This document shows positions 1 to 47,025 of a stretch of DNA of 52,361 bases, piece by piece; position 1 is the stretch's first letter, and every line of letters begins with the position of its first letter. The translations under genes and the position numbers were made by a program. Source of the DNA: a virus; IMG/VR virus record IMGVR_UViG_3300025309_000439, positions 1 through 52,361 of that record; one strand, 5' to 3'. The notes below the pieces were generated by a model. That model was given only the letters and a program-made list of their open reading frames with translations, was not told the DNA's origin and did no database searches.

Positions 1-42
1 TCAAGGCGAAGACCGCGGGTTCGAATCCCGTCGACCCCGCCA
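1..42 (+). tRNA. 3' end of a tRNA gene, probably tRNA-Glu (partial)
   Basis: The first 42 bases have the layout of a tRNA 3' half. There is a T-loop TTCGAAT at 20-26 flanked by a 5-bp T-stem (15-19 with 27-31), an acceptor strand at 32-38, discriminator G39 and an encoded CCA at 40-42. Fitting a 5-base variable loop (10-14) and the anticodon stem 3' strand (5-9) puts U and C at anticodon positions 35 and 36, so the anticodon is NUC (Glu or Asp). The sequence around it is closer to tRNA-Glu as I know that family. The 5' half lies outside the window. The identity is an inference; that this is a tRNA end is clear. Confidence 0.85.
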
Positions 43-1737
43 ATTATCCGGCAATTCTGCTACCGGTGTTCTATCACCGGAGTTTAGAGTTGCCGGTTTT
101 TTAGTGGGTAATTGCCCCCATCGTCTTAGCCCCGAATGGGATTTGAACTTTTCGCTGCCAGAGCCACCTTTTCCGTCGAGCGCCCGCTGCAGGTCATCCA
201 CCGGCAATTCGTGCAACTTCACCTCGCATTTCCCGTCCCACACGACCACCTGCCTTATCAATAAGTGGAGAGCCTGAATCCGGCGTTCCAGCGGTATCTT
301 GTAAATGAACCGGGTGAACCGCTGTAGCACCCCCTGCATCACATCCACATCGTAGACCGCCCGCTTGCGGAAACCTATCTTCGCGTCCAACTCCCCCAGC
401 TTCGCTTCCACATCCCGTTTGGCCGCTTCCAATCTCGCCATCTCGCGCTCCGCCTGCTGGTTGACGCCGTTGGCCTTCGCCAAACCGATGAGGTTGTGCA
501 TCTCCCGGCTTATCGTCTTGAAATTTTCCTCGAGAATGCGCCGTTCCTTCTCCAGATGCCTGACGCCCTCGGTGGTAAGACTCTCCACTTTCGCAACCAC
601 CCGCTCCAGAAGTTGCCGGTCATAGCCTATGCCAGCCAGCTTCTCGATAACCCACTCTTCCAGTTTATCGGCACCTATGCTGTTAAAATCGCATTTTATG
701 GACAAGCCGTTCTGTTTTCCCAGGCACTTGTAGTATCGATATACCTTGCCCTTCTTCGGCCGCGAGTAGCTCGATGCGGAACTCCCGCACTCTCCGCAGC
801 GCACCAGTCCCTTCAGCAGATAACCGTGCGCGTTCCGGGCATATGTTATCTGCCCCTCACGCCTTTTATCATGGGAATACAGCAGTTGCTGCGCCTGGTC
901 AAATATCTGCTTTGAAATGATGGGCTTATGCTGGCCGGGGAACTCCGTTTTAGTCCTATGGTTGGTGATGATCCCGATGTAAACCTTTCGGCGCAGAATA
1001 CGCGTCAGCGTGTCTAGGTCGAAGGGCTTGCCTCCCGACACCCGGCCATCCTGAGTCTTATAAATCTTGCGCCGAAAACCCTGACTATTGAGTTCCTCGG
1101 CCACTTTTAAGGTCGAACCGCGCTCCAAATAGAGGCCAAAAATACGCCGAACCAATTGGGCTTCCGTTTCATTGACCACCAGATGCTTTTCCTTGAAGTC
1201 ATACCCCAGAATAGCCACGCCGCCGGACCATAGTCCCTTCTTCGCCCTGGATAGGTGCATATCCTTCGACCGCTCCACATCCAGTTCCCGGTCGTACTGG
1301 GCGAACTGCACCATGATCGCGGTCATCAGCCGTCCCTGCGGGCTTTTCGTGTCGATGGACTCGGTAGCCGAAACGAACGCCACGTTATGCTTTTCAAAGA
1401 GTTCCAATAAGGAATGGAAGTCCTTGCTATTCCGGGTCAGCCGGTCGAGCTTATAAACGATGATGGCCTGCACCCTGTCTTCCTCAACGGCTTTGAGCAG
1501 CCGCTGTATGGCAGGCCGTTTGAGGCTCTTGCCGGATTCCGCAGGATCATCAAATACCTCAGGATACTCCTGCCAGCCTTTTTCCTTTTGTATCTGAATA
1601 TAGGAACGGCAGGCGTTTTTCTGATTATCCAAGGACGTAACTTCGCCGGTCAGGTTTTCATCGTTGGATTTGCGCGTGTAAATCGCAACCCGGACGAGGG
1701 TCTGTTTTCCTTCCGCCATTGAATTATTCGCTATCAT
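1..1737 (-). CDS. Large serine recombinase (site-specific integrase)
   Basis: Catalyses integration and excision of the element through a 5'-phosphoserine intermediate. The N-terminal resolvase domain has YTRKS with the catalytic Ser near residue 24, and KLDRLTRN further on. A recombinase domain follows, then a zinc ribbon (CGEC with two later Cys) around residues 315-355 and a coiled-coil stretch around 400-455, which is the large serine recombinase layout. I chose ATG 1737 because GGGGGA lies 7 bases upstream; GTG 1770 and ATG 1719 are alternatives. The frame has no stop until TGA at 1-3, so the last 14 or so codons are the antisense of the tRNA. Its ending (RRDSNPR...) is a well-known sign of reading through a tRNA gene. 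About 578 aa. Confidence 0.93.
   Translation of the reverse strand: MIANNSMAEGKQTLVRVAIYTRKSNDENLTGEVTSLDNQKNACRSYIQIQKEKGWQEYPEVFDDPAESGKSLKRPAIQRLLKAVEEDRVQAIIVYKLDRLTRNSKDFHSLLELFEKHNVAFVSATESIDTKSPQGRLMTAIMVQFAQYDRELDVERSKDMHLSRAKKGLWSGGVAILGYDFKEKHLVVNETEAQLVRRIFGLYLERGSTLKVAEELNSQGFRRKIYKTQDGRVSGGKPFDLDTLTRILRRKVYIGIITNHRTKTEFPGQHKPIISKQIFDQAQQLLYSHDKRREGQITYARNAHGYLLKGLVRCGECGSSASSYSRPKKGKVYRYYKCLGKQNGLSIKCDFNSIGADKLEEWVIEKLAGIGYDRQLLERVVAKVESLTTEGVRHLEKERRILEENFKTISREMHNLIGLAKANGVNQQAEREMARLEAAKRDVEAKLGELDAKIGFRKRAVYDVDVMQGVLQRFTRFIYKIPLERRIQALHLLIRQVVVWDGKCEVKLHELPVDDLQRALDGKGGSGSEKFKSHSGLRRWGQLPTKKPATLNSGDRTPVAELPDNWRGRRDSNPRSSP
30..100. other. Probable left prophage attachment junction (attL) at the tRNA 3' end
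   Basis: A recombinase gene abuts and runs into the 3' end of a tRNA gene, the classic position of a prophage boundary. The exact crossover cannot be set from one end. The core probably lies in the T-arm to CCA segment (15-42) or just after it. I looked for a second copy of the T-arm/acceptor sequence in the rest of the window and found none, so the right junction is not in view. Large serine recombinases use tRNA genes less often than tyrosine integrases do, so a host protein-coding target nearby cannot be excluded. Confidence 0.5.
48..102 (+). terminator. Rho-independent terminator downstream of the tRNA
   Basis: An 11-bp outer stem (48-58 with 86-96, one G-U pair) encloses a second perfect 6-bp hairpin (63-68 with 75-80). 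A run of six T follows at 97-102. On the plus strand this is a standard terminator for the tRNA transcript, with an unusual two-level stem. On the other strand the same bases encode the C-terminal tail of the serine recombinase. The dyad could alternatively belong to a recombinase attachment site. Confidence 0.7.
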
Positions 1738-1801
1738 AGACGCATCCCCCGCTTTCCACTCACTGATCACTTACAAGGTTTCCAGGCGGAAATCAAGGCC
1801 C

Positions 1802-4481: not shown

Positions 4482-4520
4482 AGCCAAAACCCACTTTTCA
4501 TTGTGGGTTTTGGCTTTTTT
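4482..4520 (+). terminator. Strong rho-independent terminator after the SAP/zinc-ribbon pair
   Basis: A perfect 13-bp stem (4482-4494 with 4503-4515), an 8-base loop and a T-run (4515-4520). Just upstream, 4442-4460 holds a smaller dyad (CCATCGA/TCGATGG). The element separates the cargo pair from the early phage operon. Confidence 0.93.
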
Positions 4521-4550
4521 ATTCCCTAAAAACGCCTTTCACCGAAAATT

Positions 4551-4650
4551 CGCCATTTAATGGCGACAGGTCCTAATTCCGGGCGCAGAGATAGAACCGC
4601 CTGGAACAGCCCTCTCAGGGATACTGGACCTGTCCCCTGAGATGGCTTTT
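4551..4650 (+). ncRNA. Candidate structured RNA with H-type pseudoknot
   Basis: Four helices can be drawn by eye. A: 4551-4555 with 4561-4565. B: GACAGGTCC 4565-4573 with GGACCTGTC 4626-4634, 9 bp perfect. C: 4577-4585 with 4598-4606, 9 bp including one G-U, closing a purine-rich 12-base loop. D: 4608-4620 with 4635-4647, 12 of 13 positions pair. B and D interlock (order B, D, B', D'), giving an H-type pseudoknot with hairpin C inside. Helix D ends in TTTT, so D could also act as a terminator that competes with, or is stabilised by, B. The element lies in the leader of the sigma-like gene (ATG at 4717). I do not recognise it as a known riboswitch or ribozyme. Pairing is seen; function is inferred. 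Confidence 0.6.
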
Positions 4651-4716
4651 CTTATTCCAGCAGTGTAGTCGCGTAGCACAGGTTCTGTCAATGCGTCCTA
4701 AACACGGAGGACGTAT

Positions 4717-5319
4717 ATGGACAGAAAACTTGTTTGTGGTTGGAAGGAATTCAGTGATTGGGAAGTTAATCTCGTAAAAGGAAAGGCGAAAAGCCTATCG
4801 GCAAAACCCGGCTTCTCCCAGGAAGATATCCCGGATATCGAACAGGAGTTGCTGCTGACAGTCCATCGCAAACGTCACGCCTCGGATAGTTGGGCGGAAA
4901 TCAAGGCATCCAAGCGCACCATACTGAGTCGTATCCTGGATAATCGCATCCGGGACCTCATAGACTCAGCCAATACAGACAAGCGGCGAGTCCATACACT
5001 TACGGACTCGCTAAATGAGGTGGTTTCTCTTCCAGAAAAGGGGCAGCCCAAAATACTGGAAGATTACCTTGGCGATGACCACATCATAGCGATGCGGCGC
5101 CAGCCTATCGCTACACCGCAGGACCTTGAAATAGAACTCTCCTTGCGCCGCCGCGAGCTATCTACACTCCAACGCCGGATGAGCGAACTGCTTAAGCAGG
5201 GATTCTCCGTAACGGAAACCGCCAAGGTGATGGGACTTCCTCGCACCACGCTGTACCGGGAAATAGACCGCCTGCGTGAAATCTTCCAAGAGGAGGGACT
5301 ACAAGTTTACGTCGAATAG
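4717..5319 (+). CDS. Phage sigma-factor-like regulator
   Basis: 200 residues. The N-terminal helical part (about 30-90) includes DIEQELLLTVHRK and a following long helix ending in RDLIDSANTDKRR, like sigma region 2. The C-terminal part (about 140-195) has a region-4-type helix-turn-helix (GFSVTETAKVMGLPRTTLY). It probably directs transcription of the phage early or late genes. GGAGG sits 6 bases before the ATG. A complex RNA element lies just upstream. It is the first gene of the early rightward operon. It could alternatively be a non-sigma HTH protein of the same general shape. Confidence 0.75.
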   Translation: MDRKLVCGWKEFSDWEVNLVKGKAKSLSAKPGFSQEDIPDIEQELLLTVHRKRHASDSWAEIKASKRTILSRILDNRIRDLIDSANTDKRRVHTLTDSLNEVVSLPEKGQPKILEDYLGDDHIIAMRRQPIATPQDLEIELSLRRRELSTLQRRMSELLKQGFSVTETAKVMGLPRTTLYREIDRLREIFQEEGLQVYVE

Positions 5320-5378: not shown

Positions 5379-5654
5379 ATGGTCTACAGGTTCAAGTTCA
5401 AGGAAAACATTCCGGTCAAAGAGATAGAGGACTCCCTCTTCTGGGCGGTCTTTAATGCCGAATCCCTTTACGGCAAGACAAAAGTCCGCCTGGATGCCTC
5501 TTTCCTCTTTGACCGGGAAAGGAGCGTCTGCGTCATCGATAAAACCACCGATGTCGGCCAGCATATAGCCCAGATATTTACATCCTTAGTAACCCACGAA
5601 TTTGGAGAAGACGCGTTCAAAGTTGAACGCCTGCCCACCAAGGAAAAACCATGA
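5379..5654 (+). CDS. Hypothetical early phage protein
   Basis: 91 residues, acidic and mixed alpha/beta (FKENIPVKEIEDSLFWAVF at the start, then a strand-rich middle). No recognised domain. An AGGGAG ribosome binding site precedes the ATG. The stop overlaps the start of the exonuclease gene by 4 bases (ATGA), so the two are translationally coupled. Small proteins of this kind often sit before phage recombination genes, but I cannot assign a role. Confidence 0.75.
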   Translation: MVYRFKFKENIPVKEIEDSLFWAVFNAESLYGKTKVRLDASFLFDRERSVCVIDKTTDVGQHIAQIFTSLVTHEFGEDAFKVERLPTKEKP

Positions 5655-6496
5655 AATTACCAGAACCCAAATATATCGTAAGCGATGCGAACCACAAATA
5701 CAGCATCGTACTCCCCACAGGCGAGACTGCCGGGCCGTTCAAATCAGTGACCGGAATCCTCCAGGTCCTTGATAAACCGGCTCTCGTAGGCTGGAGCGCC
5801 AGGGAGTCGGCCAATTACTTCAAAGCTGAACTGCTCCGCCTTGGGCGCAGCGCGCTTGATCCGGCCATGCTCGACCAGATAGCCAAGGACGCGGCAGGGG
5901 CGCACCGCCGTAAGTCCAAGGACGCTGCTGACCTGGGCACCCGAGTACATGGCTTGTGCGAGGCAATTATTAAAGGAGAGGAACCTGCCGACATCCCGGC
6001 TGAACTGGCCGAACCCGCCCTCGACTTTAAGCGCTGGCGTATGCAGAGCGACATAGAGCTCGTCGCTCTTGAGCTTCCTGTCGCCTCTCTGGAACACCAC
6101 TTTGGCGGCCGCATCGACGCCGTCGGTTACTCAGCCACACGCGGCGGCCTGGGAATAGTGGACCTTAAGACTTCTTCCGGCTTCTACGGCAATGAATATT
6201 CCTATCAGGTCGGCGGCTATGCCGCAGCCCTGGCCGAGCAGTACGGCATTAATGTCGCCTGGGCCGAAATAGTCCGCTTCGGTAAAAAGCCACCTTACGA
6301 TTCAGAAGGCCGCCCTGTCACAGACCTTCCCGCAGCCATACAAGGCTTTCTAAACGCTGCTGCAGTCGCGCTCTCTAATTCCGTCCCGCTAATCGGAGAG
6401 CCCGACTTTTGCACGAAAACTATACGCGCAGAAGAGGCGGCCCGCGCGGCTAAAACGACCACGCCCAAATCCAAGAAAACGGCGTTCCCATTTTAG
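5651..6496 (+). CDS. Cas4/RecB-type PD-(D/E)XK exonuclease
   Basis: 281 residues. The nuclease core is visible: an early helix region with TRVHGLCEAII (about 98-108), FGGRIDAVG (Asp near 155), then GIVDLKTSSG (Asp near 172, Lys near 174), and a conserved YSYQVGGYAAAL helix. This is the motif series of RecB-family phage exonucleases that resect DNA ends for recombination. It overlaps the previous gene by 4 bases and is followed 32 bases later by a Sak4-like ATPase, so it very likely forms an exonuclease-annealase pair. The Lys-rich tail ends in FPF. Cysteines for a Cas4 iron-sulfur cluster are not evident. Confidence 0.88.
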   Translation: MKLPEPKYIVSDANHKYSIVLPTGETAGPFKSVTGILQVLDKPALVGWSARESANYFKAELLRLGRSALDPAMLDQIAKDAAGAHRRKSKDAADLGTRVHGLCEAIIKGEEPADIPAELAEPALDFKRWRMQSDIELVALELPVASLEHHFGGRIDAVGYSATRGGLGIVDLKTSSGFYGNEYSYQVGGYAAALAEQYGINVAWAEIVRFGKKPPYDSEGRPVTDLPAAIQGFLNAAAVALSNSVPLIGEPDFCTKTIRAEEAARAAKTTTPKSKKTAFPF

Positions 6497-14385: not shown

Positions 14386-15800
14386 CCAACCGAATACTTA
14401 ATCAGGGCCCCCTCCCAGAACTGGACGCCAAGAGCCTCCAGCGGAAGCTGTTCGACCTCTTTGCCTTTGCGCGGGACGTACTGGGCTATCACCACATCAG
14501 CAAGCTGCACCTGCGCTGGTATAAAGAACTGCTGGATCATCGCTATATCCTGCTTTTGAGCCCCCGGGGGCATCTCAAGACCTCGGCAGTCACAGTGGGC
14601 TATTCCCTCTGGCGGCTTACGCAGGACCATAACCTGCGCATTTCCATCCTTAACGAAGTGCTCGGCAACGCCAAAGATATCCTCCAGACCATCAAGGCGC
14701 ATATCTCCAGCGAAAAGTTCCAGGAGCTTTACGGCCACTGGGACACCCTGAGCAGCATGTGGACGGCTGAGAAGATTCTTATCCCCCGCGACAAGGTGCT
14801 CAAGGAGCCCAGCATCTCGGCTGCGGGCGCACTGGGTACCATCGTAAGCCAGCACGCGGACCTGATAGTGATAGACGACCCACACAGCGAGAAGAACTCC
14901 CAGACGCCGAACCAGCGCAAGAAGATAATCTCGTGGTTCCAGAATACTGTCATGCCCATTCTGGAGCCGTCCGGCCAGCTGATAGTCTGCATGACCCGCT
15001 GGCATAAAGACGACCTGGCCGGGCATATTATGTCCGATCCCGGCTTCAAGAACTGGCACGTAATCGAGCAGCGTGCAGAATGGACTGATGAGGCCGGTAA
15101 ACGCCAAATCTTATTCCCTGAAAAATGGTCACCGGAAGCACTGAACCAAATTAAGGCCAATATGGGCAGCCAGGCCTACCGTACGCAGATGCTCAACGAT
15201 GTCGCCGGTCAGGAAGGCTCGGATTTCAAAATTGAATGGCTCACCGCCTGCCGCTATGCGGAAAAGCCGAAGGACATGAATATTTACATAGGCGTGGACC
15301 TTGCGGCCGGCAGTGCTGAGTCCCATTCGAAGTTCGCCTATGTGGTCCTGGGAATCCCAAAGGGCGACAAAGACGCCTATGTGCTGGCGGCGCATAAGGA
15401 CAGCATCCAGTTCCCGGAGCAGGTAAAAACCATCAAATGGCTCTGCAAGTTCTATGAGCCCACCGAGGTGGGCATCGAAGCCAACGCCTATCAGCAGTCT
15501 ATGCTGCAGGTGTTGCGAGTGGATGAGGAGACATCCCGCCTGCCGATAAAAGGCATCACCACTCAGGGCGACAAGCAGCGACGCATCAGAGGGCTGGCGC
15601 TGCTGTTTGAAAACAGGGCTCTCCGGCTGCCCGAAAGCTTGCCGGAGCTGGAAGAGGAACTCCTGCATTTCCCATTGGGTAATGACGACCTGCTGGATGC
15701 GCTCTGGCTGGCGATGGAGGTCCTGCGAAAAAAGAAGGTGCCGCCGAACATCAGATATGTCTCTGATTTCGGCCAGAGCAGATACAATGACTATATCTAA
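14382..15800 (+). CDS. terL: Terminase large subunit
   Basis: 472 residues. The ATPase has a Walker-A-like SPRGHLKT at 60-67 and Walker B DLIVIDDPHSEKN near 157-169. The RNase H-like nuclease domain begins at GVDLAAGS near 303 and contains DDLLDALW near 434. It packages concatemeric DNA into proheads through the portal, which lies two genes on. Length matches the usual 420-560 residues. Start ATG overlaps a tiny upstream ORF. The 3' end overlaps the Mom-like gene by 14 bases. Confidence 0.93.
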   Translation: MTNRILNQGPLPELDAKSLQRKLFDLFAFARDVLGYHHISKLHLRWYKELLDHRYILLLSPRGHLKTSAVTVGYSLWRLTQDHNLRISILNEVLGNAKDILQTIKAHISSEKFQELYGHWDTLSSMWTAEKILIPRDKVLKEPSISAAGALGTIVSQHADLIVIDDPHSEKNSQTPNQRKKIISWFQNTVMPILEPSGQLIVCMTRWHKDDLAGHIMSDPGFKNWHVIEQRAEWTDEAGKRQILFPEKWSPEALNQIKANMGSQAYRTQMLNDVAGQEGSDFKIEWLTACRYAEKPKDMNIYIGVDLAAGSAESHSKFAYVVLGIPKGDKDAYVLAAHKDSIQFPEQVKTIKWLCKFYEPTEVGIEANAYQQSMLQVLRVDEETSRLPIKGITTQGDKQRRIRGLALLFENRALRLPESLPELEEELLHFPLGNDDLLDALWLAMEVLRKKKVPPNIRYVSDFGQSRYNDYI

Positions 15801-16560
15801 TGCGGATGATAGCGGCTTGTCTATAAGACTCGTCAGTAATGTGACTGGCCGGGAATTTGTCGCGGCACATCATTATGCCGTCATCTGCCCCCCCATCACG
15901 AAGATAACCTACGGCCTATTCAAAGGCGAGAAATTGGTAGGCGTTGCTCTCTGGGGCTTCGGCACCCGGCCCATGCACACCATCCGAAAGCTGTTCCCGT
16001 CCCTGAGCGTGAATAATTATCTGGAACTTAACAGGTTCTGCGTCCTGGACGAGATGCCCCGGAATACCGAGAGCATGTTCCTGAAGCAGTGCTGCCAACA
16101 TATCAGGCAGGATTTTCCGAATGTCCATGTGCTATTCAGCTGGGCCGACGGCCTCAGGGGCAAACCCGGCTATGTCTACCAGTCGGCCAACTGGCTATAC
16201 GGTGGTTTTATTAAGAGCCAATTTTACTGCACGGGAGACGGCGAAGTGGTTCATCCCCGGCTTTTGATTACCCGTTACGGGACGAGAGCCAACGAATTCA
16301 CCCGTGGTATCGGCCTGACCAAAATATCAGGCTTCCAGTTCCGCTACTGTAAATTCATGTGCTCGCATAAACTGCGAAAGGCCTTAATCAAGGAGTCGCC
16401 GTTTAACTGGCGCAGCAAATATCCGAAGAATGGCGATTTGCGGTGGTGGATAGATGCGGAGGAGGGCTCAAGAGAGAGCCGTGAGGTTCCCATCCTCAAG
16501 GGGTCGGGGCGGTTCCGGCACTCCGCTGGGATTTCAACGGGGGACACGCTATGGGCATAA
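15787..16560 (+). CDS. Mom-like DNA modification protein
   Basis: 257 residues. The middle carries the signature I associate with phage Mu Mom and its relatives: LELNRFCVLDEMPRNTESMF, then VLFSWADG, GKPGYVYQSANWLYGG. Mu Mom is a GNAT-fold enzyme that modifies adenine in phage DNA and so protects it from many restriction enzymes. Starting at ATG 15787, inside the terminase end, avoids an implausible long overlap. The last 80 residues extend beyond the Mom core. It sits between terminase and portal, so it would be made late, as DNA is packaged. Assignment is by motif only; the exact modification is not known. Confidence 0.8.
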   Translation: MTISNADDSGLSIRLVSNVTGREFVAAHHYAVICPPITKITYGLFKGEKLVGVALWGFGTRPMHTIRKLFPSLSVNNYLELNRFCVLDEMPRNTESMFLKQCCQHIRQDFPNVHVLFSWADGLRGKPGYVYQSANWLYGGFIKSQFYCTGDGEVVHPRLLITRYGTRANEFTRGIGLTKISGFQFRYCKFMCSHKLRKALIKESPFNWRSKYPKNGDLRWWIDAEEGSRESREVPILKGSGRFRHSAGISTGDTLWA

Positions 16561-18512
16561 GGGAACAACTGATAAATGCGCTATTCGGCGGCGTGATCCG
16601 TGCCGAGGTCGAGAAGTCGTCCAAACAGATAATCTCGTATGTCACCGGCCTGCCCGCCACCGGCGACGGCATCCTGCCAGATATCGACTTTGAGATTTTC
16701 AACCAGATGTACGAGCAGACCTCCTGGGTCCGCGCCGTAGTCGGGGTTATCTGCAAGGCTGTAACTGCCCGAGGCTATTCGCTGGCACCCGCAAAGGTTA
16801 ATGCCGACCCAAAGAATGCTGAAACTCTGCAGGAGTTCTTTGCCAACTGTAATCCCAACGATACCCTGCTGGAGATACTGGACGATATAGCTCGCGACGT
16901 TTATGTGTTTGGGAATGCGTTTCTTGAAGTGGTTTATGGCCCGGACGGCAAACCACGCGAGTTGTGGAACCTCGACGCGACCAGCATACGGGTAAAAGCA
17001 GACGAGCACGGTTCCATTACAGGTTACATCCAGGTCCCGCGGAACCAGCCGGGAAAGGTCGAATTTAAAACCAGAGAGGTTATTCACTTCAAACTGGGAA
17101 CCAAGGGGGCTACCCTATACGGCCTTTCCCCGCTGGCTTCGCTGATACTGCCGGTGACGGTGGACAAATACGCCCAGATATACAACCGGGCGTTCTTCCT
17201 GAACGGCGCGAAAATCCGGGGCGCGTTCATCATGAAAGACGCGACACCGGAGCAGGTGGACCGCAACCGTGACTACATGGCGGCCCGCGCCAAGAATCCG
17301 GATATGGCGCACTCAGACCTCGTGCTGGAGGGCGACATCGAGTTCAAACAGATAAGCACGACCCAGAAGGACATGGAGTTTCTGGAACTCAGGGAGTTCA
17401 CCCGGAACGAGATCCTGGCCGTTTATGGTGTGCCGCCGAGCAAGGTCTCTATAATCGAGACCGGCAATATCGGCAGCGGCAGCGGCGAGCAGCAGACGGC
17501 GACGTTTTACGATGAGACTATTTCGCCCTTCCAGATGCGGCTGGCGGAGAAAATCACAAAGCACGTCATCCGGCAGGGCTTCGGCATCTCGGACTGGTCG
17601 TTCCAGTTTAATAAGCGGGCGATAGACGAAAAAGACCAGGCCGAAATATTTAACATCTACCTGCAAAACGGCGTTTTCAGCCCGGATGAGGTCCGCAGGA
17701 TTGTAGCGCCACGAATGCCGGAGATGCAGAAATCGCTGAACCCGCGCGAGACTATCGCCAACGCCACCCGTGCCGTAGTTGCCCTTGAGAACAGGTTTGT
17801 TGACGCGGTAAGGGCCATCTTCCGCAAGATAGGCGACGTGGTGAAGGCAAAACTGCCGGGCCTGAAACGCGAAGGCGACCTGGAGGTCCTGCTCCAGCTG
17901 GTGGACAAGGACAAGGTCGCCAGGACCATAGAACGGTTCGCCCTGGAATCCGCATATAAGGGGCTGGAACTATCGGCACAGCGGGCCGGGCTTGAGGGCA
18001 TTGAGGACTTAAGCCATGCGGCACATGAGAAACTCAAAACCGAGGCCTCAGCGCTGGCCGATGACCTGACGCGCGGCATGGTGGACCGGCTCCGGGAGGA
18101 ACTGTCGGCCGGCATCAGGGCAAATGAGACCATCCCGCAGCTTATAAAGCGCATTGATACCTGGGTCGGCAGCCAGACTATCACGATAAAGCCGGTTCTG
18201 GATGCCGATGGAAATATCATCAGAGCCGCCAGCAGCCGGGTAATTGGCAAGAATGTGCTGGCCGAAGTGATAGCCCGCACGGAGGCCAACCGGGCCTATA
18301 ACGCCGGGAATTTGGACGCGCTCAAGCAGGCTGGCGTTGAAAACGTGCAATGGCTACTGGCCTCGGACGCCTGTAAAGAATGCGCCGAGTTGGCTGAAGT
18401 TGCGCCCGGAGAGAAGCTCGGCAAGATTATGGCGCTGGATGATGCACAGGACATGCTGCCCGCGCATCCAAATTGCCGATGCACATGGGTTACAGTACTG
18501 GAGGAAAAATGA
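16551..18512 (+). CDS. Portal protein fused to Mu gpF-like head morphogenesis domain
   Basis: 653 residues. Residues about 1-400 are an HK97-type portal (VRAVVGVICKAVTARGYSL, REVIHFKLG, EILAVYGVPPSKVS, ATFYDETISPF). Residues about 480-653 match the phage Mu gpF minor head family: VIARTEANRAYNAGNLDAL, a CKEC cysteine pair and PAHPNCRC at the end. Normally these are two adjacent genes; here they are one polypeptide with a helical linker. It forms the DNA entry vertex and helps start head assembly. GGGGGA precedes ATG 16551, which overlaps the Mom-like gene by 10 bases. Confidence 0.92.
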   Translation: MGIREQLINALFGGVIRAEVEKSSKQIISYVTGLPATGDGILPDIDFEIFNQMYEQTSWVRAVVGVICKAVTARGYSLAPAKVNADPKNAETLQEFFANCNPNDTLLEILDDIARDVYVFGNAFLEVVYGPDGKPRELWNLDATSIRVKADEHGSITGYIQVPRNQPGKVEFKTREVIHFKLGTKGATLYGLSPLASLILPVTVDKYAQIYNRAFFLNGAKIRGAFIMKDATPEQVDRNRDYMAARAKNPDMAHSDLVLEGDIEFKQISTTQKDMEFLELREFTRNEILAVYGVPPSKVSIIETGNIGSGSGEQQTATFYDETISPFQMRLAEKITKHVIRQGFGISDWSFQFNKRAIDEKDQAEIFNIYLQNGVFSPDEVRRIVAPRMPEMQKSLNPRETIANATRAVVALENRFVDAVRAIFRKIGDVVKAKLPGLKREGDLEVLLQLVDKDKVARTIERFALESAYKGLELSAQRAGLEGIEDLSHAAHEKLKTEASALADDLTRGMVDRLREELSAGIRANETIPQLIKRIDTWVGSQTITIKPVLDADGNIIRAASSRVIGKNVLAEVIARTEANRAYNAGNLDALKQAGVENVQWLLASDACKECAELAEVAPGEKLGKIMALDDAQDMLPAHPNCRCTWVTVLEEK

Positions 18513-20503
18513 GCACTGAAACGATGAAGATTGATTTTGCGGACTACGGACAATTGTTCCGCTCGGACCCAGCCAAACTGCCGGACCAAGACCTGCTGGC
18601 AATGGATTTCATTCTGCACAGGGCATGGGCCATGCTGCAGGCGGGACATAAGGTGTTTGATGAAAAGACGAACTGGGACGCGCAGGATATTCTGGTTCTG
18701 CATGTCATAGTCCTCCAAGAGATGAGCCGCCGGGCCTTTCAGCATACGATACAGGACAATTTGCAGGAACAAACCCTGGCTATTATAGCTGACGAAACCG
18801 ACGTGGAAGCTGAGGAGGATGCCGAGAAGGGTGTGCGGCAGGCCTTCGGCTCCTACGGTGGCAAGCGCTTCCTGGCTCACCGCATCGCCTCGTATATCCC
18901 CCACCACCGCACATATGTCGAACCGTTCGCGGGCGGGGCCGCCGTTCTCTACGCCAAAGACCCGTCGCCGCAGGAAGCATTGAATGACCGCGACGCGGAA
19001 ATAGCCTTCATGCACAAATTCATCCGCGACCACAGCCAGGAGGACACGAACGCTCTCGCAAAGCGGGAGTGGACAATCCTCAGGGAGACCCACGAACGGC
19101 TTAAGGCTATGAAGCCGGAAACGGATCGGGACAGGTTCTATAAAGCGTTCTATCTCACACGATCCTCTTACGGCAAAATGCGCGGCGGCTCATTTAATCC
19201 CGCTAACGAGGGCGTAAAAATAGACTTTCCGAACACAGTAGAACGCGCTCAGGAGCGCCTGCGCAACGTGGCGGTCAGCAATAAAGACTACCTGCAAGTC
19301 CTGAAGGAGTATGACAGCCCAGACACGTTCTTCTATATGGACCCGCCATATCCGGACAAGTTCAACCTCTTCGATTTCGGCTTCAAGGAGGAAGAATTTC
19401 TGAAAGCTGTTAAAGCCCTCAAGGCAAAATGGATTGTCTCATACCCATCGGAACATGCCAAGGTTTTCAAAGGCTATCACGTCTATATCGTGAAGCGCCG
19501 GAACCAGATGCGGGGCCCGGGCGGCAACAAGGAGTGGGTTACAGAAATGATGGCCTCCAATTTTCCCTTGAAGCCGGTGCATCTCTACATAGAAAAGGAT
19601 GCATTGCCGGAGCCGGAGTCAATAAACCAAATACCAGAGATTTTCCCCCATTTGGTTGATCCATTGGAGAAGATACGCGGCGCGTTCAAAAGTCCGGGCG
19701 GCAAATACCGGCTATATAAGAAAATCATCTCCCTCATCCCGGAGCATAAAACTTTCGTAGAAGGATTCTGCGGCGGCGCACAAGTGTTTTTCCACAAGAA
19801 GCAGTCGGACACGGAGGTGATGAACGACATCAACTCTGACCTCATATTCGCATACCGCTTCATCAAAGGCATGTCGCCGGAGGATTTGGCCTGGCTTAAG
19901 AAACAAAACTGGATAATCTCCAAGGCGCACGCAAAGAAGGTGTTTGAATCTGTGCCCAAAACGCCCAGAGAACATTTTTACCGTGTGGCATATCTGAATA
20001 AGGCCACATACTGGGGCCGGACCGACGTGATGGAAGGCGTCCGGAATCACGGCTCAAGCGGCGAAGGGATGCCGATAAGGCTCGTAGACCATCTGCCGGA
20101 AATACAGGAGCGCCTCAAAAGCACAAGACTTCATTCGTGGGACTGGAAAGAGGTTATAAAGGAATACGACTCGGACAACACCTTCTTTTACTTGGACCCG
20201 CCCTATCCTCTCCACTGGCCCAAGGAAGGCGGCAAGCATGGCTCAAAATTCTTCAAGGAAGAAGATCTAGTCCCGACACTCAAAAGCATAAAGGGCAGAT
20301 TCCTCTTGAGCTATGAGCTGGAAAAGATAGGGCTGTTCAAGGGATTTAAGACGTACCGCATCAAGACATTATGGACGGGAGTGCATCACATGGGAGCAAG
20401 GAAGAAGTATGAATTGTTAGTGGCGAACTATCAAGTCATGCCGATGGACATCTATTTGGAGAAATTGGCACAGACTAGTGTAATGGAGACACACCCAAAA
20501 TAG
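18509..20503 (+). CDS. Tandem Dam-type (D12) DNA N6-adenine methyltransferase fusion
   Basis: 664 residues from ATG 18509 (GGAGG upstream, ATGA overlap with the portal gene). After a 110-residue N-terminal region of unknown fold come two complete D12-class methyltransferase domains. First: YGGKR near 115, motif I EPFAGGAAV near 137, catalytic DPPY near 278. Second: SPGGKYRL near 395, EGFCGGAQV near 417, DPPY near 563. Both keep the AdoMet loop and the catalytic motif in alpha-class order. Two joined D12 domains are known in M.FokI, where each methylates one strand of an asymmetric site. Its 3' end overlaps, tail to tail by 29 bases, a leftward gene with a nuclease-like core. Confidence 0.9.
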   Translation: MSTETMKIDFADYGQLFRSDPAKLPDQDLLAMDFILHRAWAMLQAGHKVFDEKTNWDAQDILVLHVIVLQEMSRRAFQHTIQDNLQEQTLAIIADETDVEAEEDAEKGVRQAFGSYGGKRFLAHRIASYIPHHRTYVEPFAGGAAVLYAKDPSPQEALNDRDAEIAFMHKFIRDHSQEDTNALAKREWTILRETHERLKAMKPETDRDRFYKAFYLTRSSYGKMRGGSFNPANEGVKIDFPNTVERAQERLRNVAVSNKDYLQVLKEYDSPDTFFYMDPPYPDKFNLFDFGFKEEEFLKAVKALKAKWIVSYPSEHAKVFKGYHVYIVKRRNQMRGPGGNKEWVTEMMASNFPLKPVHLYIEKDALPEPESINQIPEIFPHLVDPLEKIRGAFKSPGGKYRLYKKIISLIPEHKTFVEGFCGGAQVFFHKKQSDTEVMNDINSDLIFAYRFIKGMSPEDLAWLKKQNWIISKAHAKKVFESVPKTPREHFYRVAYLNKATYWGRTDVMEGVRNHGSSGEGMPIRLVDHLPEIQERLKSTRLHSWDWKEVIKEYDSDNTFFYLDPPYPLHWPKEGGKHGSKFFKEEDLVPTLKSIKGRFLLSYELEKIGLFKGFKTYRIKTLWTGVHHMGARKKYELLVANYQVMPMDIYLEKLAQTSVMETHPK

Positions 20504-41255: not shown

Positions 41256-43823
41256 TTACAAAAGGCTTTTAATAGCGCTCCAATCCTTCCCCTTTGGCAT
41301 TACAAAAAGGCATTTACCATTGCTGCGTTTTGCCCATAGTTCTCCGATTTGGCGTTTTTCCTTGCTATCCGGTGTGTCCCAAATATTTTCGCCTTTATAT
41401 TCAACCACCAGTGTTCTACCGTCTTTTAACTGGCAGAGAAAGTCTGGGTAAAAGCGATCCGTGGCCGTCTGCAATGAGAAAGAATAGATTTTACGTTCAA
41501 TATTTCGAACCCAATATTTGACCTCATCGAGCTTTGAAAGAAAAAGAGCGCAATCAAATTCTTCGCCCTCAGCTTTTAAATCCCCTATCTCGGGGAAAAA
41601 GTGCTTTGTAAGTTTAACAAAGCCGGTATAGGGCCAGTTGTAGGCGTATTTACCCTCCTGGAAAGCTATGGCATTATCAAGATTGACAGAAAAGTTATCA
41701 TCATTAGATAAAAGCATTTGATGGTTTTTCCGCATTGCCTCGGCCTTGTTTTTCTTTACCAGATTTTCAAGGGCTGCCCGCAACCTAAACTTTGAATGGG
41801 CTAACTCGCTTAAAATAATTTTTCGATCACCAAGCAGATATGAAACCGCTTTATTTAGGAAAGCCGCCTTATCATCCGGCAGGATGGTAACATCTAAAAT
41901 GTTTTTATCCAGCCAGGAAACAAGTTCAACCTGTGACCATTCTTTATATCCCTCAAACAATCCAATTTCCATCTCAATCTTTTCAAAATATTCAAACTCT
42001 ATTCTACCTTTCTCACTGACGGCGAATTTGCCGCCGTCGGCACTCTGTCCGGAACGCTTAAATTCTGCCTCGGGAAGCTCATAAGAATAATCCACAAGCT
42101 TCCATCCTTTTTCAAGCAGATGGGTGTCCTCAAATGGCTCCCAAATGCCCGCGCTTTTATAAGCCAAAAGCGAAACTGTAAATATTTCTTTTTTTTCCGC
42201 CGGGCTTAGTTCCCTGGCTTCCCGCCCTGAATGCAGTTTGGCTATGGCTTTATGCGCTGCTTCTATACCTTTTTCGGTATGAAAAATCTTTTCAAAAGCA
42301 ACTTCTTGAGGCTTGGTCAAAGTCCCTTTTATTGTAATCGAACCGGTTTCCTGCGCCACCTCTATCTTACTCTTCAGGTTATCAGGGATGGATTCCACAG
42401 AGGGCAGTTCCGGCGAGGCAAAGGTTACCGGTTGCGCCTTAAAAAGCTCCAGATCAGGCTGCCCATCCGAGATGTGTATAAAATCAGCGGCCTCCTGCTG
42501 TTCAAAGCCATTGCTAACCAAGCCGTCATGAAGACTTTTTACTGTGGCTTGAAAATCGCTTGAAGTCACATAGGCGTAGGCGACATTAAGTTCCGGGGCC
42601 TGCTTCTTTTTGGCTTTGGGCATACGCATTATGCGCCCTAAAATCTGCTCTGCTGCAGTGGAAGAGTTTGTGTTGCGGAAAGTGCAGAGCACATAAGCAA
42701 AAGGACAATCCCACCCCTCACGCAGTTTATCAATGGTTATGATAAATCTCTTATGGCTTTTTTCTGAAAGAATATTTTCACCTTTCAAGTCATCCACAGC
42801 ACCAGTAGCGATAGCGATTTGCCCTTCCGGAATTTTGAAGTCATCAATTAAAGATTTTTTTACCAGCTCTGGGGAGAGGGTTTCTTTCCCCTGCTCTCTA
42901 CGCTCAGCCTGTAAAAGCATCACAGGGCGGATATATTCCCCCGTTAATGCGCGTTCCGCATCGGCTTTAGTCTGTAAATTATTCAAGCGGGCAATAGCAT
43001 CCCTTAATGCATCTTCCCAATTATCTCGGCGGACAAGCTCCAACGGCATTTTTATCATCTCTTCCGCCTGTAAAGAAGCCGCCGAAACACTAAACAGGAC
43101 ATTGCTAGGGGAAAATGTGCGATCCGGTGTGGCGGTGAGTTCTAAAATAGCGCTGGGCTCAAACCTTGCCAGGGTTTCAAAAGCTAAAGGCGTTCCTTGG
43201 TTGTGTGCTTCGTCAACAACAATAAAGGGATGGCGCATCCTTAAAACATCAACAAAAGAATGATTACCTTTTATTTCCGGGTCCTGCACGTTCTCAAAGT
43301 GAGGCATTAACACCCCGCTTTGCTTATAAACGTTGAGCCGGTCTGTATCAGCCTGTTTAAATGCCTGCATGGTGGCAACTATTATCACATTAGACCCATT
43401 TAACACAGCAGGTTGAATGTGGAGCGCTTCTTCAATACCCAGGACACTTACATCGCCTAAAGATGAAAAGACAAAATCATGCAGCAGGTTACCGGAAGTT
43501 TTTAGCGCCTGCAAGGTTTGCTCCCTTATTGGCTCCGACGGAACAAGCCAAAGGGTTACACTATGCTGAGTAAAAAGCAGGCTACGGTTGGCCCTCTCTA
43601 TAGCCATACCGCCGATAAGAGTTTTGCCACCACCGGTTGGTATACGCAAACAGATATACGGGACATCTGTGAGTGTGGGCAGTGAACGATAATGTAGAGG
43701 ACTACCGAACCATTCGGCAGTGGTATGTTGAAAAGCCTGTGTAGTGTTGCCAGTTGTTTTACAGATTTTGAAAAAATTCTCTAGGTGGTCCAATGCCTGC
43801 TGTTGATACTGTTTTAAAATCAT
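41256..43823 (-). CDS. res: Type III restriction endonuclease Res subunit
   Basis: 855 residues. SF2 helicase motifs: Walker A PTGGGKT at 62-68, VVDEAH near 203, LTATPDRT soon after, and QILGRIMRMP later. A C-terminal PD-(D/E)XK domain has YPDFLCQLKDGRTLVVEYKG near 800. It needs the Mod subunit for site recognition and cuts DNA with inversely oriented sites. Its start overlaps the mod stop by 4 bases. Slightly shorter than EcoP1 Res. Convergent with the lysis genes; AT-richer than the phage core. Confidence 0.93.
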   Translation of the reverse strand: MILKQYQQQALDHLENFFKICKTTGNTTQAFQHTTAEWFGSPLHYRSLPTLTDVPYICLRIPTGGGKTLIGGMAIERANRSLLFTQHSVTLWLVPSEPIREQTLQALKTSGNLLHDFVFSSLGDVSVLGIEEALHIQPAVLNGSNVIIVATMQAFKQADTDRLNVYKQSGVLMPHFENVQDPEIKGNHSFVDVLRMRHPFIVVDEAHNQGTPLAFETLARFEPSAILELTATPDRTFSPSNVLFSVSAASLQAEEMIKMPLELVRRDNWEDALRDAIARLNNLQTKADAERALTGEYIRPVMLLQAERREQGKETLSPELVKKSLIDDFKIPEGQIAIATGAVDDLKGENILSEKSHKRFIITIDKLREGWDCPFAYVLCTFRNTNSSTAAEQILGRIMRMPKAKKKQAPELNVAYAYVTSSDFQATVKSLHDGLVSNGFEQQEAADFIHISDGQPDLELFKAQPVTFASPELPSVESIPDNLKSKIEVAQETGSITIKGTLTKPQEVAFEKIFHTEKGIEAAHKAIAKLHSGREARELSPAEKKEIFTVSLLAYKSAGIWEPFEDTHLLEKGWKLVDYSYELPEAEFKRSGQSADGGKFAVSEKGRIEFEYFEKIEMEIGLFEGYKEWSQVELVSWLDKNILDVTILPDDKAAFLNKAVSYLLGDRKIILSELAHSKFRLRAALENLVKKNKAEAMRKNHQMLLSNDDNFSVNLDNAIAFQEGKYAYNWPYTGFVKLTKHFFPEIGDLKAEGEEFDCALFLSKLDEVKYWVRNIERKIYSFSLQTATDRFYPDFLCQLKDGRTLVVEYKGENIWDTPDSKEKRQIGELWAKRSNGKCLFVMPKGKDWSAIKSLL

Positions 43824-45517
43824 AATGCGTCAACCTTCAGCTTATACGGAAGCTGTTTAAATATTATGTTTTCCCGGTTTAGGCGAGTCTCCCCTATGCG
43901 GCAGGCGGTTCCATAAACGACCTTGGGGCCAGAATGTTTCGGCAAGTGCGTCAATATTGTGGTGGTTAGAACATTGCCACCGTCTGGCGCTTTGTCTTTA
44001 AGAATACCATTATAAAGCAAGTAAACGGCAGTACTGTTATAGACACCGATCAGTGGGCTATTGGCTTTTGCGCCTTTCGGAAGTGGTTCTCCAGTTTCCG
44101 TGAAAAACACGTGCCGGGCTAAGTCATGAAACTTTACTGTGTTACGGATGTTACCTTTTTCATCAAAGAGGGCATCAGCAAGCTGACAGTATCTAAATCC
44201 ACCACCAATACCTTCAACAAAATCGCCTTTTAGGTTTTTATAGCCAAGTATAACTCTTTTATTTCTCTCGGAGGTAATAGTCCGTGCTATATCGGCATTC
44301 ATTTCACAAAGCACAAATCGTCTCCGGGTGTTTTCTTCTTTATTTAATTTTAAAACAGCATGTGCAGTTGTGCCCGAACCGCCAAATGAGTCCATTATTA
44401 AATCATCGGGGCCTGTAATCGCTTCAAATAATTTTTGCAAAACTTCTTCATCTTTAGGATTTTCGAAGACATCAGCCCCCATTATTTGTCGGAGTCGCTT
44501 CATTGATGCACGTCTATCTTTATAAATCACACTCGAGATAACAATATCATCCGTTTCCGATAAATACATTTTTAGTTTCGGCACTATTGATTCATCTTCC
44601 CCCCACTCCACACGCCCATCTGCAATTAGTTTATCCATGGTTGTTTTAGTTGGCCAACCACGCATAGGACGTTTACACGGCTTTTGGGTAATCGGGTGGA
44701 GAACATCGTATGGAGCACGAGTCCTACCGCTTTCCGCTGAAATGTCCCCAGCAAAATACACCCCTTTTAAATCGACCTGCTTATAATGGCGATGAGCCCA
44801 GGATGGATGTTTTTTCCCTATCTCAAGATACCATTCCTGCAAAGCAGTGTTAATCTTTTTATAGTTGTCCCCAAACTCTTTAGTCAACTTCTCTACTTTT
44901 TCGAAAATCTCATCAAGTCCTTCTTTTCCCATTCGCCATTTAGCACCTTTCAGTTTCTGTTTGTTTTTCGCATAGCACAAAATATAATCATGTGATATTG
45001 ATACAAGCCTAGAATCATTCTTTGAGGTGCCCTCCCAGATGATTTCTGCAATAAAATTCTGAGCGCCAAAAACCTCATCCATAAGAAGTCGCAAGTGATG
45101 AATTTCATGATCATCTATACTTACAAAAATTGCGCCATCTTCCCGCAGCATTTTTTGCAACAAAGAAACACGTGGAAGCATCATACACAACCACTTATCA
45201 TGCCTGGTTAAATCCTCCTCCTCTTCTCCTACCACTTTCCCAAGCCAAGCCCGAATTTCAGGGCTGTTAACATTATCATTGTAAACCCATTTTTCATTAC
45301 CAATATTGTAGGGTGGATCAATGTAAACACATTTTACCTGGCCTGCATAATATGGCAGAAGGGCTTTCAGGGCTACAAGGTTATCGCCCTCAACAATCAA
45401 ATTACCTGTGCCGGGTTCGCCAACTGAAAGTTCCGGCACATCTTTTAATAGGTGGAAAGGCACATGGCGGTGATGGTTTTCAACGGCTTTTTTTCCAATC
45501 CAGTTCAATGTTGGCAT
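43820..45517 (-). CDS. mod: Type III DNA adenine methyltransferase Mod subunit
   Basis: 565 residues from ATG 45517 (a TTG at 45535 is possible). Catalytic YIDPPYNIG at 65-73 precedes the AdoMet loop DSFGGSGTTAHAV near 382, the beta-class order of type III Mod proteins; the target recognition region lies between. It methylates adenine in one strand of an asymmetric site and guides Res. A promoter lies about 40 bases upstream. No simple-sequence tract suggesting phase variation was seen. Confidence 0.93.
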   Translation of the reverse strand: MPTLNWIGKKAVENHHRHVPFHLLKDVPELSVGEPGTGNLIVEGDNLVALKALLPYYAGQVKCVYIDPPYNIGNEKWVYNDNVNSPEIRAWLGKVVGEEEEDLTRHDKWLCMMLPRVSLLQKMLREDGAIFVSIDDHEIHHLRLLMDEVFGAQNFIAEIIWEGTSKNDSRLVSISHDYILCYAKNKQKLKGAKWRMGKEGLDEIFEKVEKLTKEFGDNYKKINTALQEWYLEIGKKHPSWAHRHYKQVDLKGVYFAGDISAESGRTRAPYDVLHPITQKPCKRPMRGWPTKTTMDKLIADGRVEWGEDESIVPKLKMYLSETDDIVISSVIYKDRRASMKRLRQIMGADVFENPKDEEVLQKLFEAITGPDDLIMDSFGGSGTTAHAVLKLNKEENTRRRFVLCEMNADIARTITSERNKRVILGYKNLKGDFVEGIGGGFRYCQLADALFDEKGNIRNTVKFHDLARHVFFTETGEPLPKGAKANSPLIGVYNSTAVYLLYNGILKDKAPDGGNVLTTTILTHLPKHSGPKVVYGTACRIGETRLNRENIIFKQLPYKLKVDAL

Positions 45518-45557
45518 AAAATTAAGATATTCCAAAGCCTTTGTGAGCTAAACGTTA

Positions 45558-45637: not shown

Positions 45638-46522
45638 TTAAAACCTTGGATGTGCCTTCCTACATGAATCATGAAGCAGTTCCACAGTGACGTGCGCATA
45701 GCGTTGCGTTGTCATTATCGAGCTATGGCCCATGAACTCCTGCAAGACCCTTATATCTGCGCCACCCGCCAACAGATGTGTCGCTGCGCTATGTCGGATT
45801 TGATGCGGTGTGATCCTGCCCTGTATCCCAGCCCTCTTGGCCATTCGCTTGAGTTCCCACCAAAACGTGCCCCTGTTTAGTGACTGACCGCGCGGATTCA
45901 CAAAAAGGATAGCCTGTGGTATATGCAAGCGTTGATTCCTGGCATCTAGGTAACGCAGGATGGCTTCTTTAGCCTGATTTCCAAACGGAATGATGCGCTC
46001 CCGGCCGCCCTTGCCACAGATACGCGCAGAGCAATCATCTAAATTAACTCGGTCCACCGTAAGCCCAAGCAGCTCCGATACCCGCATGCCGGTGGCATAC
46101 ATGAGTTCCATCATCGCTTTATTTCGAACATGGTTAAATTTACTGCCTATGGGCGCATCAAGGAGCCGCGCTATCTCCGGAACGCTTAGCGGCTCCGGCA
46201 GGCGTTGCTTAAATTTGGGTAGCTTCATCCCGATGGTAGGGTCCGCCGAGGCATGACCGCGCTCCGCTAGGAAGCGATGGAATTGCCGGATAGCTATGGC
46301 CGCCGCGAAAAGCGAACTGGACGCCACCTGAGCGTTTTTTCTGGCCTCCAGATAACCCAGGACAGATTCTCTGGTGGCGGTGGCCGGTGTGATCCCACGG
46401 GAGGCCAGACATCGCATATAGTCACGGATTTGATAACCGTAGCTGGTCCAAGTACATGGTGAGAGACCTCGCTCCACCCGCAGGTGCTGAATAAATCCGG
46501 CCAGCATGGCATCAGGAGTCAT
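45638..46522 (-). CDS. XerD-like tyrosine recombinase
   Basis: 294 residues. N-terminal SAM-like core-binding domain (about 5-85), then the catalytic domain with TGMRVSELLGL (Arg), HQIRHSAATHLL (His-x-x-Arg) and GHSSIMTTQRYAHV (His and the Tyr nucleophile). Start ATG 46522 overlaps the stop of the peptidase-like gene. Closely XerC/XerD-like in length. It could be a second phage recombinase, a resolvase, or the integrase of a separate element; it is the last gene of a leftward chain of small genes. Confidence 0.92.
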   Translation of the reverse strand: MTPDAMLAGFIQHLRVERGLSPCTWTSYGYQIRDYMRCLASRGITPATATRESVLGYLEARKNAQVASSSLFAAAIAIRQFHRFLAERGHASADPTIGMKLPKFKQRLPEPLSVPEIARLLDAPIGSKFNHVRNKAMMELMYATGMRVSELLGLTVDRVNLDDCSARICGKGGRERIIPFGNQAKEAILRYLDARNQRLHIPQAILFVNPRGQSLNRGTFWWELKRMAKRAGIQGRITPHQIRHSAATHLLAGGADIRVLQEFMGHSSIMTTQRYAHVTVELLHDSCRKAHPRF

Positions 46523-47025
46523 GGCGTTCCGCTCCCGGCCCACCGCTGGGCCTCCCGGTCGACCGCTTTGGCACCGCGCCGCCGGGCTTGGCGTATCTTG
46601 TAAGCCACATAGCTCTTGGCCCGCCTCAGCGATTTCCGGGGTATGGGGATGCCGGACTCGCGCATGCGGTCAAAGGCCCACTGCTCAGCCTCGTATTCCT
46701 CAACATGGCGTGGTTTGCGCCTGACCCTTGGCTCTGAGGCCGCCTGGACTGGCCCGGGGCCGCCGTGGGGCAACGTGGGCGCAAAGTGGGCGGCTTTTAC
46801 ATGCCCCAAGGCTACATGGGCGCATTCATGAAGAAAAATGTGCAAGGCCCGCCGGGTAACCGGCCTCGGCACCGCTATCTCGGCGGCGCTATAGGCCCTG
46901 CCTGACAGCGTTTTGCGGATGCGGACGACCCTGACCGTCGCCGGTGTATTGGTCAGGGCCGCCTGAATACAGAGTTGCCGCATCCTTTCCTTGCCCGCTT
47001 TGAGCTTCTCCGCGTATAGCTCCAT
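46519..47025 (-). CDS. ImmA/IrrE-like metallopeptidase
   Basis: 168 residues. The zinc motif HECAH at 66-70 in HIFLHECAHVALGH, with a likely third ligand in EEYEAEQWAFD near 109-118, is the M78/ImmA pattern. Such proteins often cleave a neighbouring phage repressor, but no XRE-type repressor is adjacent here. The C-terminal 40 residues are basic and Arg-rich. Its stop overlaps the recombinase start. Confidence 0.8.
   Translation of the reverse strand: MELYAEKLKAGKERMRQLCIQAALTNTPATVRVVRIRKTLSGRAYSAAEIAVPRPVTRRALHIFLHECAHVALGHVKAAHFAPTLPHGGPGPVQAASEPRVRRKPRHVEEYEAEQWAFDRMRESGIPIPRKSLRRAKSYVAYKIRQARRRGAKAVDREAQRWAGSGTP

What the first reader, a model, noticed from the sequence alone, without database searches (positions are those of the whole stretch)
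4551..4650. Unrecognised H-type pseudoknot RNA in the leader of the phage sigma-like gene
Two long helices (B, 9 of 9 pairs; D, 12 of 13) interlock around an internal 9-bp hairpin, with a T-run after helix D. This is far more pairing than expected by chance in 100 bases, and the interlocked order is rare in simple terminators. It may be a riboswitch, an attenuator for the early operon, or a ribozyme/decoy RNA. I do not match it to HDV-like, twister, preQ1, SAM-II or fluoride folds.
Basis: seen in the sequence. Interest (0 to 1): 0.7.

Follow-up and report, generated by a model that had tools for sequence, protein, structure and literature searches.

The report
Prophage leader RNA switch, new family
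The 100 bases fold into two mutually obstructive RNA shapes just ahead of a phage sigma-factor-like gene, most likely an on/off switch for that gene, and relatives of the gene in other Elusimicrobia prophages carry a conserved, previously uncatalogued RNA switch at the same place.

Summary
The pairing is real: helices B (4565-4573/4626-4634, 9/9), C (4577-4585/4598-4606) and D (4608-4620/4635-4647, 12/13) are at the stated place, and 0 of 1000 shuffles give interlocked helices as strong. I do not favour a standing H-type pseudoknot. B's 3' strand lies inside D's loop with 0- and 5-nt linkers, so B and D obstruct each other. The region has two near-equal folds: A'+B+C (-47.5 kcal/mol, hides the terminator's 3' arm) and A+C+D (-44.0, terminator plus U-run). 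A strong hairpin hides the gene's Shine-Dalgarno (SD) sequence. Best reading: a transcription attenuator plus translational brake on a sigma-like gene. No homologue of the 100 bases was found, so covariation of B and D is untested. Orthologous sigma-like genes in Elusimicrobiota prophages have a conserved leader RNA of the same layout: antiterminator, terminator, SD hairpin. It has compensatory changes in both alternative stems and co-varying complementarity between terminator loop and SD region. It is absent from Rfam and found in 12 of 341 Elusimicrobiota genomes, in 11 ahead of a sigma-like gene. The window's RNA is not a sequence member of that family; it works like it. The trigger is unknown.

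The parts
4482..4520 (+). separate strong intrinsic terminator closing the upstream gene (13-bp stem, T6); the leader therefore probably has its own promoter downstream of it
4550..4566 (+). hairpin A (TCGCCAT/ATGGCGA); part of the terminator (OFF) fold
4552..4558 (+). 5' strand of alternative helix A' (GCCATTT), partner AGATGGC 4640-4646 in the terminator's 3' arm; part of the antiterminator (ON) fold
4565..4573 (+). helix B 5' strand (antiterminator)
   Evidence: pairing with the D loop, shuffled upstream segment reaches it in 0.1%
4577..4606 (+). hairpin C; its strand 4581-4598 can alternatively pair with 4681-4698
   Evidence: C against 4661-4716: -29.8 vs mean -16.9, p 0.0005
4608..4620 (+). 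helix D 5' strand (terminator stem)
4626..4634 (+). helix B 3' strand, lying inside the loop of D
4635..4657 (+). helix D 3' strand (4635-4647) and U-rich tail TTTCTTATT
4681..4698 (+). segment complementary to C strand 4581-4598 (14 of 18); overlaps the 5' arm of the SD hairpin
4691..4716 (+). SD-sequestering hairpin ATGCGTCCT-AAACACGG-AGGACGTAT directly before the start codon; strongest such hairpin among 28 starts tested in the window (-12.5 kcal/mol, z -3.5)
4717..5319 (+). sigma-factor-like gene (200 aa; PHROG 1740 'RNA polymerase sigma factor', E 4.9e-12; C-terminal HTH), first gene of an operon with exonuclease, Sak4-like, helicase genes

Best explanation
The 4540-4716 leader is a cis-acting RNA switch (transcription attenuator plus translational brake) controlling the phage sigma-like gene at 4717 and probably its recombination/replication operon. 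In the ON fold, B5' pairs with B3' around hairpin C, and A' hides the terminator's 3' arm, so RNA polymerase reads on. In the OFF fold, hairpin A and the D stem plus U-run form and transcription stops near 4650. B and D are alternatives: B3' sits in D's loop and abuts D3'. In read-through RNA the SD is held in the 4691-4716 hairpin, whose 5' arm can instead pair with the C strand (4581-4598), giving a possible second control at translation. Shown: the complementarities and their excess over chance, the near-equal energies, and the same layout with compensatory changes in leaders of orthologous genes. Inferred: that it is transcribed as drawn, that the folds switch in the cell, and which signal selects between them (phage protein, host protein or metabolite; unknown).
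For: Helices and chance tests. Two alternative folds, A'+B+C -47.5 and A+C+D -44.0; when growing RNAs are folded at equilibrium, B is formed at 4636 before D3' is complete and D wins only once 3' leader sequence is added. SD hairpin strongest of 28 starts. Orthologous sigma-like genes in Elusimicrobiota prophages are preceded by a conserved RNA in which GCGAYY pairs with RGTCGY (antiterminator), while the same RGTCGY strand also pairs with a downstream GCGAYY copy followed by U's (terminator). Both stems have double compensatory changes: antiterminator 94.6% of cells paired, 14 double-change cells vs 4.4 shuffled, 0/500; terminator 98.6%, 16 vs 6.0, 0/500. A covariance model of the antiterminator half finds 12 of 341 Elusimicrobiota genomes. 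In 11 of them it lies just upstream of a sigma-like gene, including members not used to build it: G181, G194, and also viral contig L106. Terminator loop and SD region are complementary in partner-specific fashion (permutation p < 5e-5 overall; 0.008 and 0.0004 in the two clades, see also 71).
Against: The window's RNA scores nothing with either family model, so support from the family is by position and layout, not homology. No homologue of the 100 bases exists in the collections searched, so B and D have no covariation test. The U-run is short and interrupted (TTTTCTTATT) and D's loop is 14 nt, so D may terminate poorly; the simple terminator scan did not list it. D-loop pairing with the downstream leader is not above chance (0.17). 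No convincing promoter was found between 4520 and 4550. A pseudoknot with a shortened D (8 bp) is sterically possible.
Confidence: 0.6

Rival explanations
1. A standing H-type pseudoknot: B and D (at least its inner 8 bp) coexist around hairpin C, forming a compact receptor (riboswitch-like aptamer or protein-binding RNA) in the leader.
For: Strands are in pseudoknot order with very strong helices; a D shortened to TCTCAGGG/CCCTGAGA leaves enough linker (geometric reasoning).
Against: 0-nt linker between B3' and D3' and 5-nt linker between D5' and B3'; full D plus B would need the C-bearing linker to span about 22 bp. The A/A' competition and the U-run are unexplained. Related leaders use mutually exclusive stems.
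Confidence: 0.2
2. A plain intrinsic terminator (D) followed by an independent promoter for the sigma-like gene; B and A' are by-products of GC-rich inverted repeats.
For: D ends in a U-run; five other 100-nt stretches of the window have equally strong interlocked helices by chance.
Against: A stronger terminator already lies at 4482-4520; B5' matches the D loop at p 0.001; SD hairpin and long-range C pairing are each at p 0.0005; orthologous leaders carry conserved antiterminators.
Confidence: 0.12
3. An independent small RNA gene (regulatory RNA or decoy) of about 100 nt ending at D's terminator, unrelated to the downstream gene.
For: Terminators flank the segment on both sides (4482-4520 and D); extensive structure.
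Against: No homologue in phages, in the Elusimicrobiota genomes or in the exact-match viral scan; complementarity to the SD hairpin arm ties it to the downstream gene; no promoter-like site detected.
Confidence: 0.06

Closest known systems
Unnamed leader-RNA family found here (sigma-like genes of Elusimicrobiota prophages; models R1/R2)
   Same: Same place before an orthologous gene; a 5' hairpin in one clade, antiterminator 5' strand, inner hairpin, terminator with U-run, SD hairpin directly before the start codon.
   Different: No sequence match. In the family the antiterminator's 3' strand is the terminator's 5' strand; in the window it lies in the terminator loop.
Bacillus subtilis trp leader (TRAP attenuator plus trpE SD hairpin; PMC12288461, PMC3913778)
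   Same: Competing RNA structures decide termination in the leader, and a second RNA structure sequesters the SD of the first gene.
   Different: No TRAP binding array; different gene, host and sequence; regulator here unknown.
Transcription-attenuating riboswitches in general (own knowledge)
   Same: Upstream domain choosing between antiterminator and terminator; tandem copies also occur (in the family's G167 genome).
   Different: No Rfam match; no ligand known.

Membership tests
   best score in the region 7 bits; members score 31-83 bits
   no match in the window
   sigma-like gene at 4717 is 46% identical to that of L005/L028
   D loop vs downstream -12.5, reached by 17% of shuffles; C strand vs SD-hairpin arm is significant instead (p 0.0005)
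Any Rfam 15 family | Covariance-model match at gathering score | tested here: not met
   whole window; sub-threshold hits involve only the separate terminator 4482-4520
H-type pseudoknot (as one standing structure) | Both stems formed at once with linkers able to span the grooves | tested here: inconclusive
   strand order met; linkers 0 and 5 nt make full-length coexistence unlikely; not measurable with these tools
Intrinsic-terminator attenuator | Mutually exclusive antiterminator and terminator plus U-run in a 5' leader | tested here: met
   two folds; U-run; termination itself not testable here

The most novel reading that the evidence does not exclude
Elusimicrobiota prophages control a fast-changing sigma-like regulator by a previously unknown class of leader RNA in which an antiterminator/terminator switch is physically coupled, by co-varying base pairing of the terminator loop with the SD hairpin, to translation of the same mRNA. 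The window carries a rearranged version in which the antiterminator pairs with the terminator loop itself. The switch would be a new riboswitch or phage-protein sensor of the lysis-lysogeny decision.
Probability: 0.35. Interest if true: 0.75.

Novelty: new variant of a known kind. Interest (0 to 1): 0.55.

Why it matters
Little is known about gene control in Elusimicrobiota phages; one full-text search turned up no paper on their phage regulation among the 15 papers listed. A conserved, Rfam-absent leader RNA that precedes the sigma-like gene (11 of 12 genomes with a model hit), with compensatory changes in both alternative stems and a terminator-loop to SD-loop contact, gives a concrete switch that can be tested in vitro without the uncultured host. 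If the trigger is a metabolite or a phage protein it would define a new riboswitch or autoregulatory class.

Tried and rejected
Rfam at gathering and at E<=10: only the neighbouring terminator gives sub-threshold hits. Blastn of the leader against phages, exact core pattern in viral contigs, DNA search of 341 Elusimicrobiota genomes: one 22-nt match (L058), judged by reading to be coding-sequence chance. tblastn of the sigma-like protein in phages and single-sequence search of viral contigs: none; relatives came through the neighbouring exonuclease. Known pseudoknot ribozyme/riboswitch folds: HDV order does not fit because hairpin C lies between B5' and D5' (own knowledge). Leader-peptide attenuation: a 26-codon ORF (4560-4637, stop inside D3') exists but has no ribosome site and no counterpart in the family; not pursued. 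The G102 model hit (E 0.007 per genome, no sigma-like gene nearby) is taken as chance. D loop pairing with the downstream leader: not significant.

Full report
What is there. The window is a virus record with integrase/recombinase genes near both ends and a temperate-phage gene set. The exonuclease gene at 5651 is 95-96% identical at protein level to that of two related viral records, L005 and L003. The sigma-like protein of L005 is identical to the one in the Elusimicrobia genome held as G001 (the record is named), so the window's host is probably an Elusimicrobiota bacterium (inference). The 100 bases lie in the 282-bp gap between a 260-aa ORF ending at 4434 and a 200-aa sigma-factor-like gene at 4717 (PHROG 1740, E 4.9e-12). 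The upstream ORF has its own strong terminator at 4482-4520.

The observation. Helices B, C and D are exactly as described. The segment folds far better than shuffles (z -5.1), and the interlocked B/D pair is reached by none of 1000 shuffles. In the same test five other 100-nt stretches of the window scored better, some in GC-rich coding DNA, so interlocking alone is weak evidence of function. Further elements: hairpin A (4550-4566), an alternative helix A' (4552-4558 with 4640-4646), and a hairpin hiding the SD (4691-4716), the strongest of 28 starts tested and matched by only 0.05% of shuffles. A strand of C (4581-4598) is complementary to 4681-4698, which includes the 5' arm of the SD hairpin (p 0.0005).

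Switch rather than knot. B3' lies in the 14-nt loop of D and touches D3' without a spacer; D5' reaches B3' by 5 nt. Full B and full D together would force the C-bearing linker along about 22 bp, so I infer that they are largely exclusive. Constrained folding gives two nested states of similar energy: A'+B+C (-47.5), in which A' also removes the terminator's 3' arm, and A+C+D (-44.0), a terminator hairpin before TTTTCTTATT. When growing RNAs are folded at equilibrium, B is complete at 4636, before D3' is made; D takes over when the 3' leader is added. These are equilibrium calculations, not kinetics. The direction of the default and the trigger are not known.

Related genes. The protein search gave no relatives in the phage records, but the exonuclease neighbour led to viral relatives whose sigma-like genes are 45-46% (L003, L005) or about 26-28% (L006, L010) identical to the window's. 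A profile of these found one more genome record and matches in 57 of 341 Elusimicrobiota genomes, about a dozen of them strong. Upstream of these genes lies a conserved RNA: GCGAYYYTAAMAGAGCC ... GCnGGCCAGAGCC ... GCCAGCGCC.GCTnGAGCCYRGTCGY, an apical hairpin, GCGRYYnGGCTC and U's, then a hairpin holding the SD. The first GCGAYY and the later GCGRYY can both pair with the same RGTCGY strand, the textbook antiterminator/terminator arrangement.

Support for that RNA. Antiterminator stems: 94.6% of cells pair, 14 cells with changes on both sides against 4.4 in shuffles (0/500), and sliding the partners destroys pairing. Terminator stem: 98.6%, 16 against 6.0, 0/500. These shuffles ignore relatedness, so they are indications, not probabilities. 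The model R2 finds 12 of 341 genomes. In eleven of them the hit lies ahead of a sigma-like gene; the twelfth, G102, is weak and without one. G181, G194 and viral contig L106 were not in the training set and do sit before sigma-like genes. G167 has tandem copies. Rfam has no match to the twelve leaders scanned.

Loop coupling. The apical loop of the terminator and the SD hairpin region are complementary within each member: UGCGU/ACGCA in L032, CACGU/ACGUG in L036, CAUGU/GCAUG in L034 (read). Exchanging partners among members weakens the duplexes: p < 5e-5 for all, 0.008 and 0.0004 in the two clades (automatically cut segments, hand-cut). The members are related, so the p values are optimistic, but the change of both partners in step is direct. 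It suggests a long-range contact that ties termination to translation. In the window the corresponding D-loop pairing is not above chance, while C-to-SD-arm pairing is.

Is the window a member? No by sequence or model. It shares position, terminator, SD hairpin, a 5' hairpin and competing stems. Either it has diverged beyond recognition or the leader was replaced together with the sigma-like gene. The gene is only 45-46% identical to its counterparts in L003 and L005, although the exonuclease two genes downstream is 95-96% identical, so this module changes much faster than its surroundings, as phage specificity modules do. I therefore claim that it works like the family, not that it belongs to it.

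Known relatives in logic. The B. subtilis trp leader combines attenuation with a structure that sequesters the trpE SD (PMC12288461). The present leaders resemble that in logic only. Full-text searches found no description of such an RNA in Elusimicrobia (titles and abstracts of the listed papers only), within the limits of an open-licence library.

Noticed in passing
4717-5319 against L003/L005: The sigma-like gene is 45-46% identical to its counterparts while the next gene (5379-5654) is 82-83% and the exonuclease (5651-6496) 95-96% identical: a fast-exchanging module inside a conserved operon.
   Followed up: partly
L060:101-270; L091:1387-1569 (genome G167): Tandem copies of the family leader RNA, the upstream one degenerate in one case; the same genome has several sigma-like genes.
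   Followed up: partly
L039 upstream of position 1480 (reverse strand); L065 3' end: A different leader type for distant sigma-like genes: a terminator enclosed by a roughly 14-bp outer helix (TGACCACGGACAGG/CCTGTCCGTGGTCGG) plus an SD hairpin.
   Followed up: no
4560-4640: 26-codon ORF beginning in hairpin A and ending with TGA inside the D 3' strand; no ribosome-binding site.
   Followed up: no
1-1770 (-) and 45638-46543 (-): Integrase/recombinase genes near both ends of the record (a serine-integrase-like protein at 1-1770; integrase PHROGs at 45638-46543).
   Followed up: no
15607-20503 and 43820-45535: Mom-like DNA modification protein and at least two DNA methyltransferase-like genes, suggesting modified phage DNA.
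   Followed up: no
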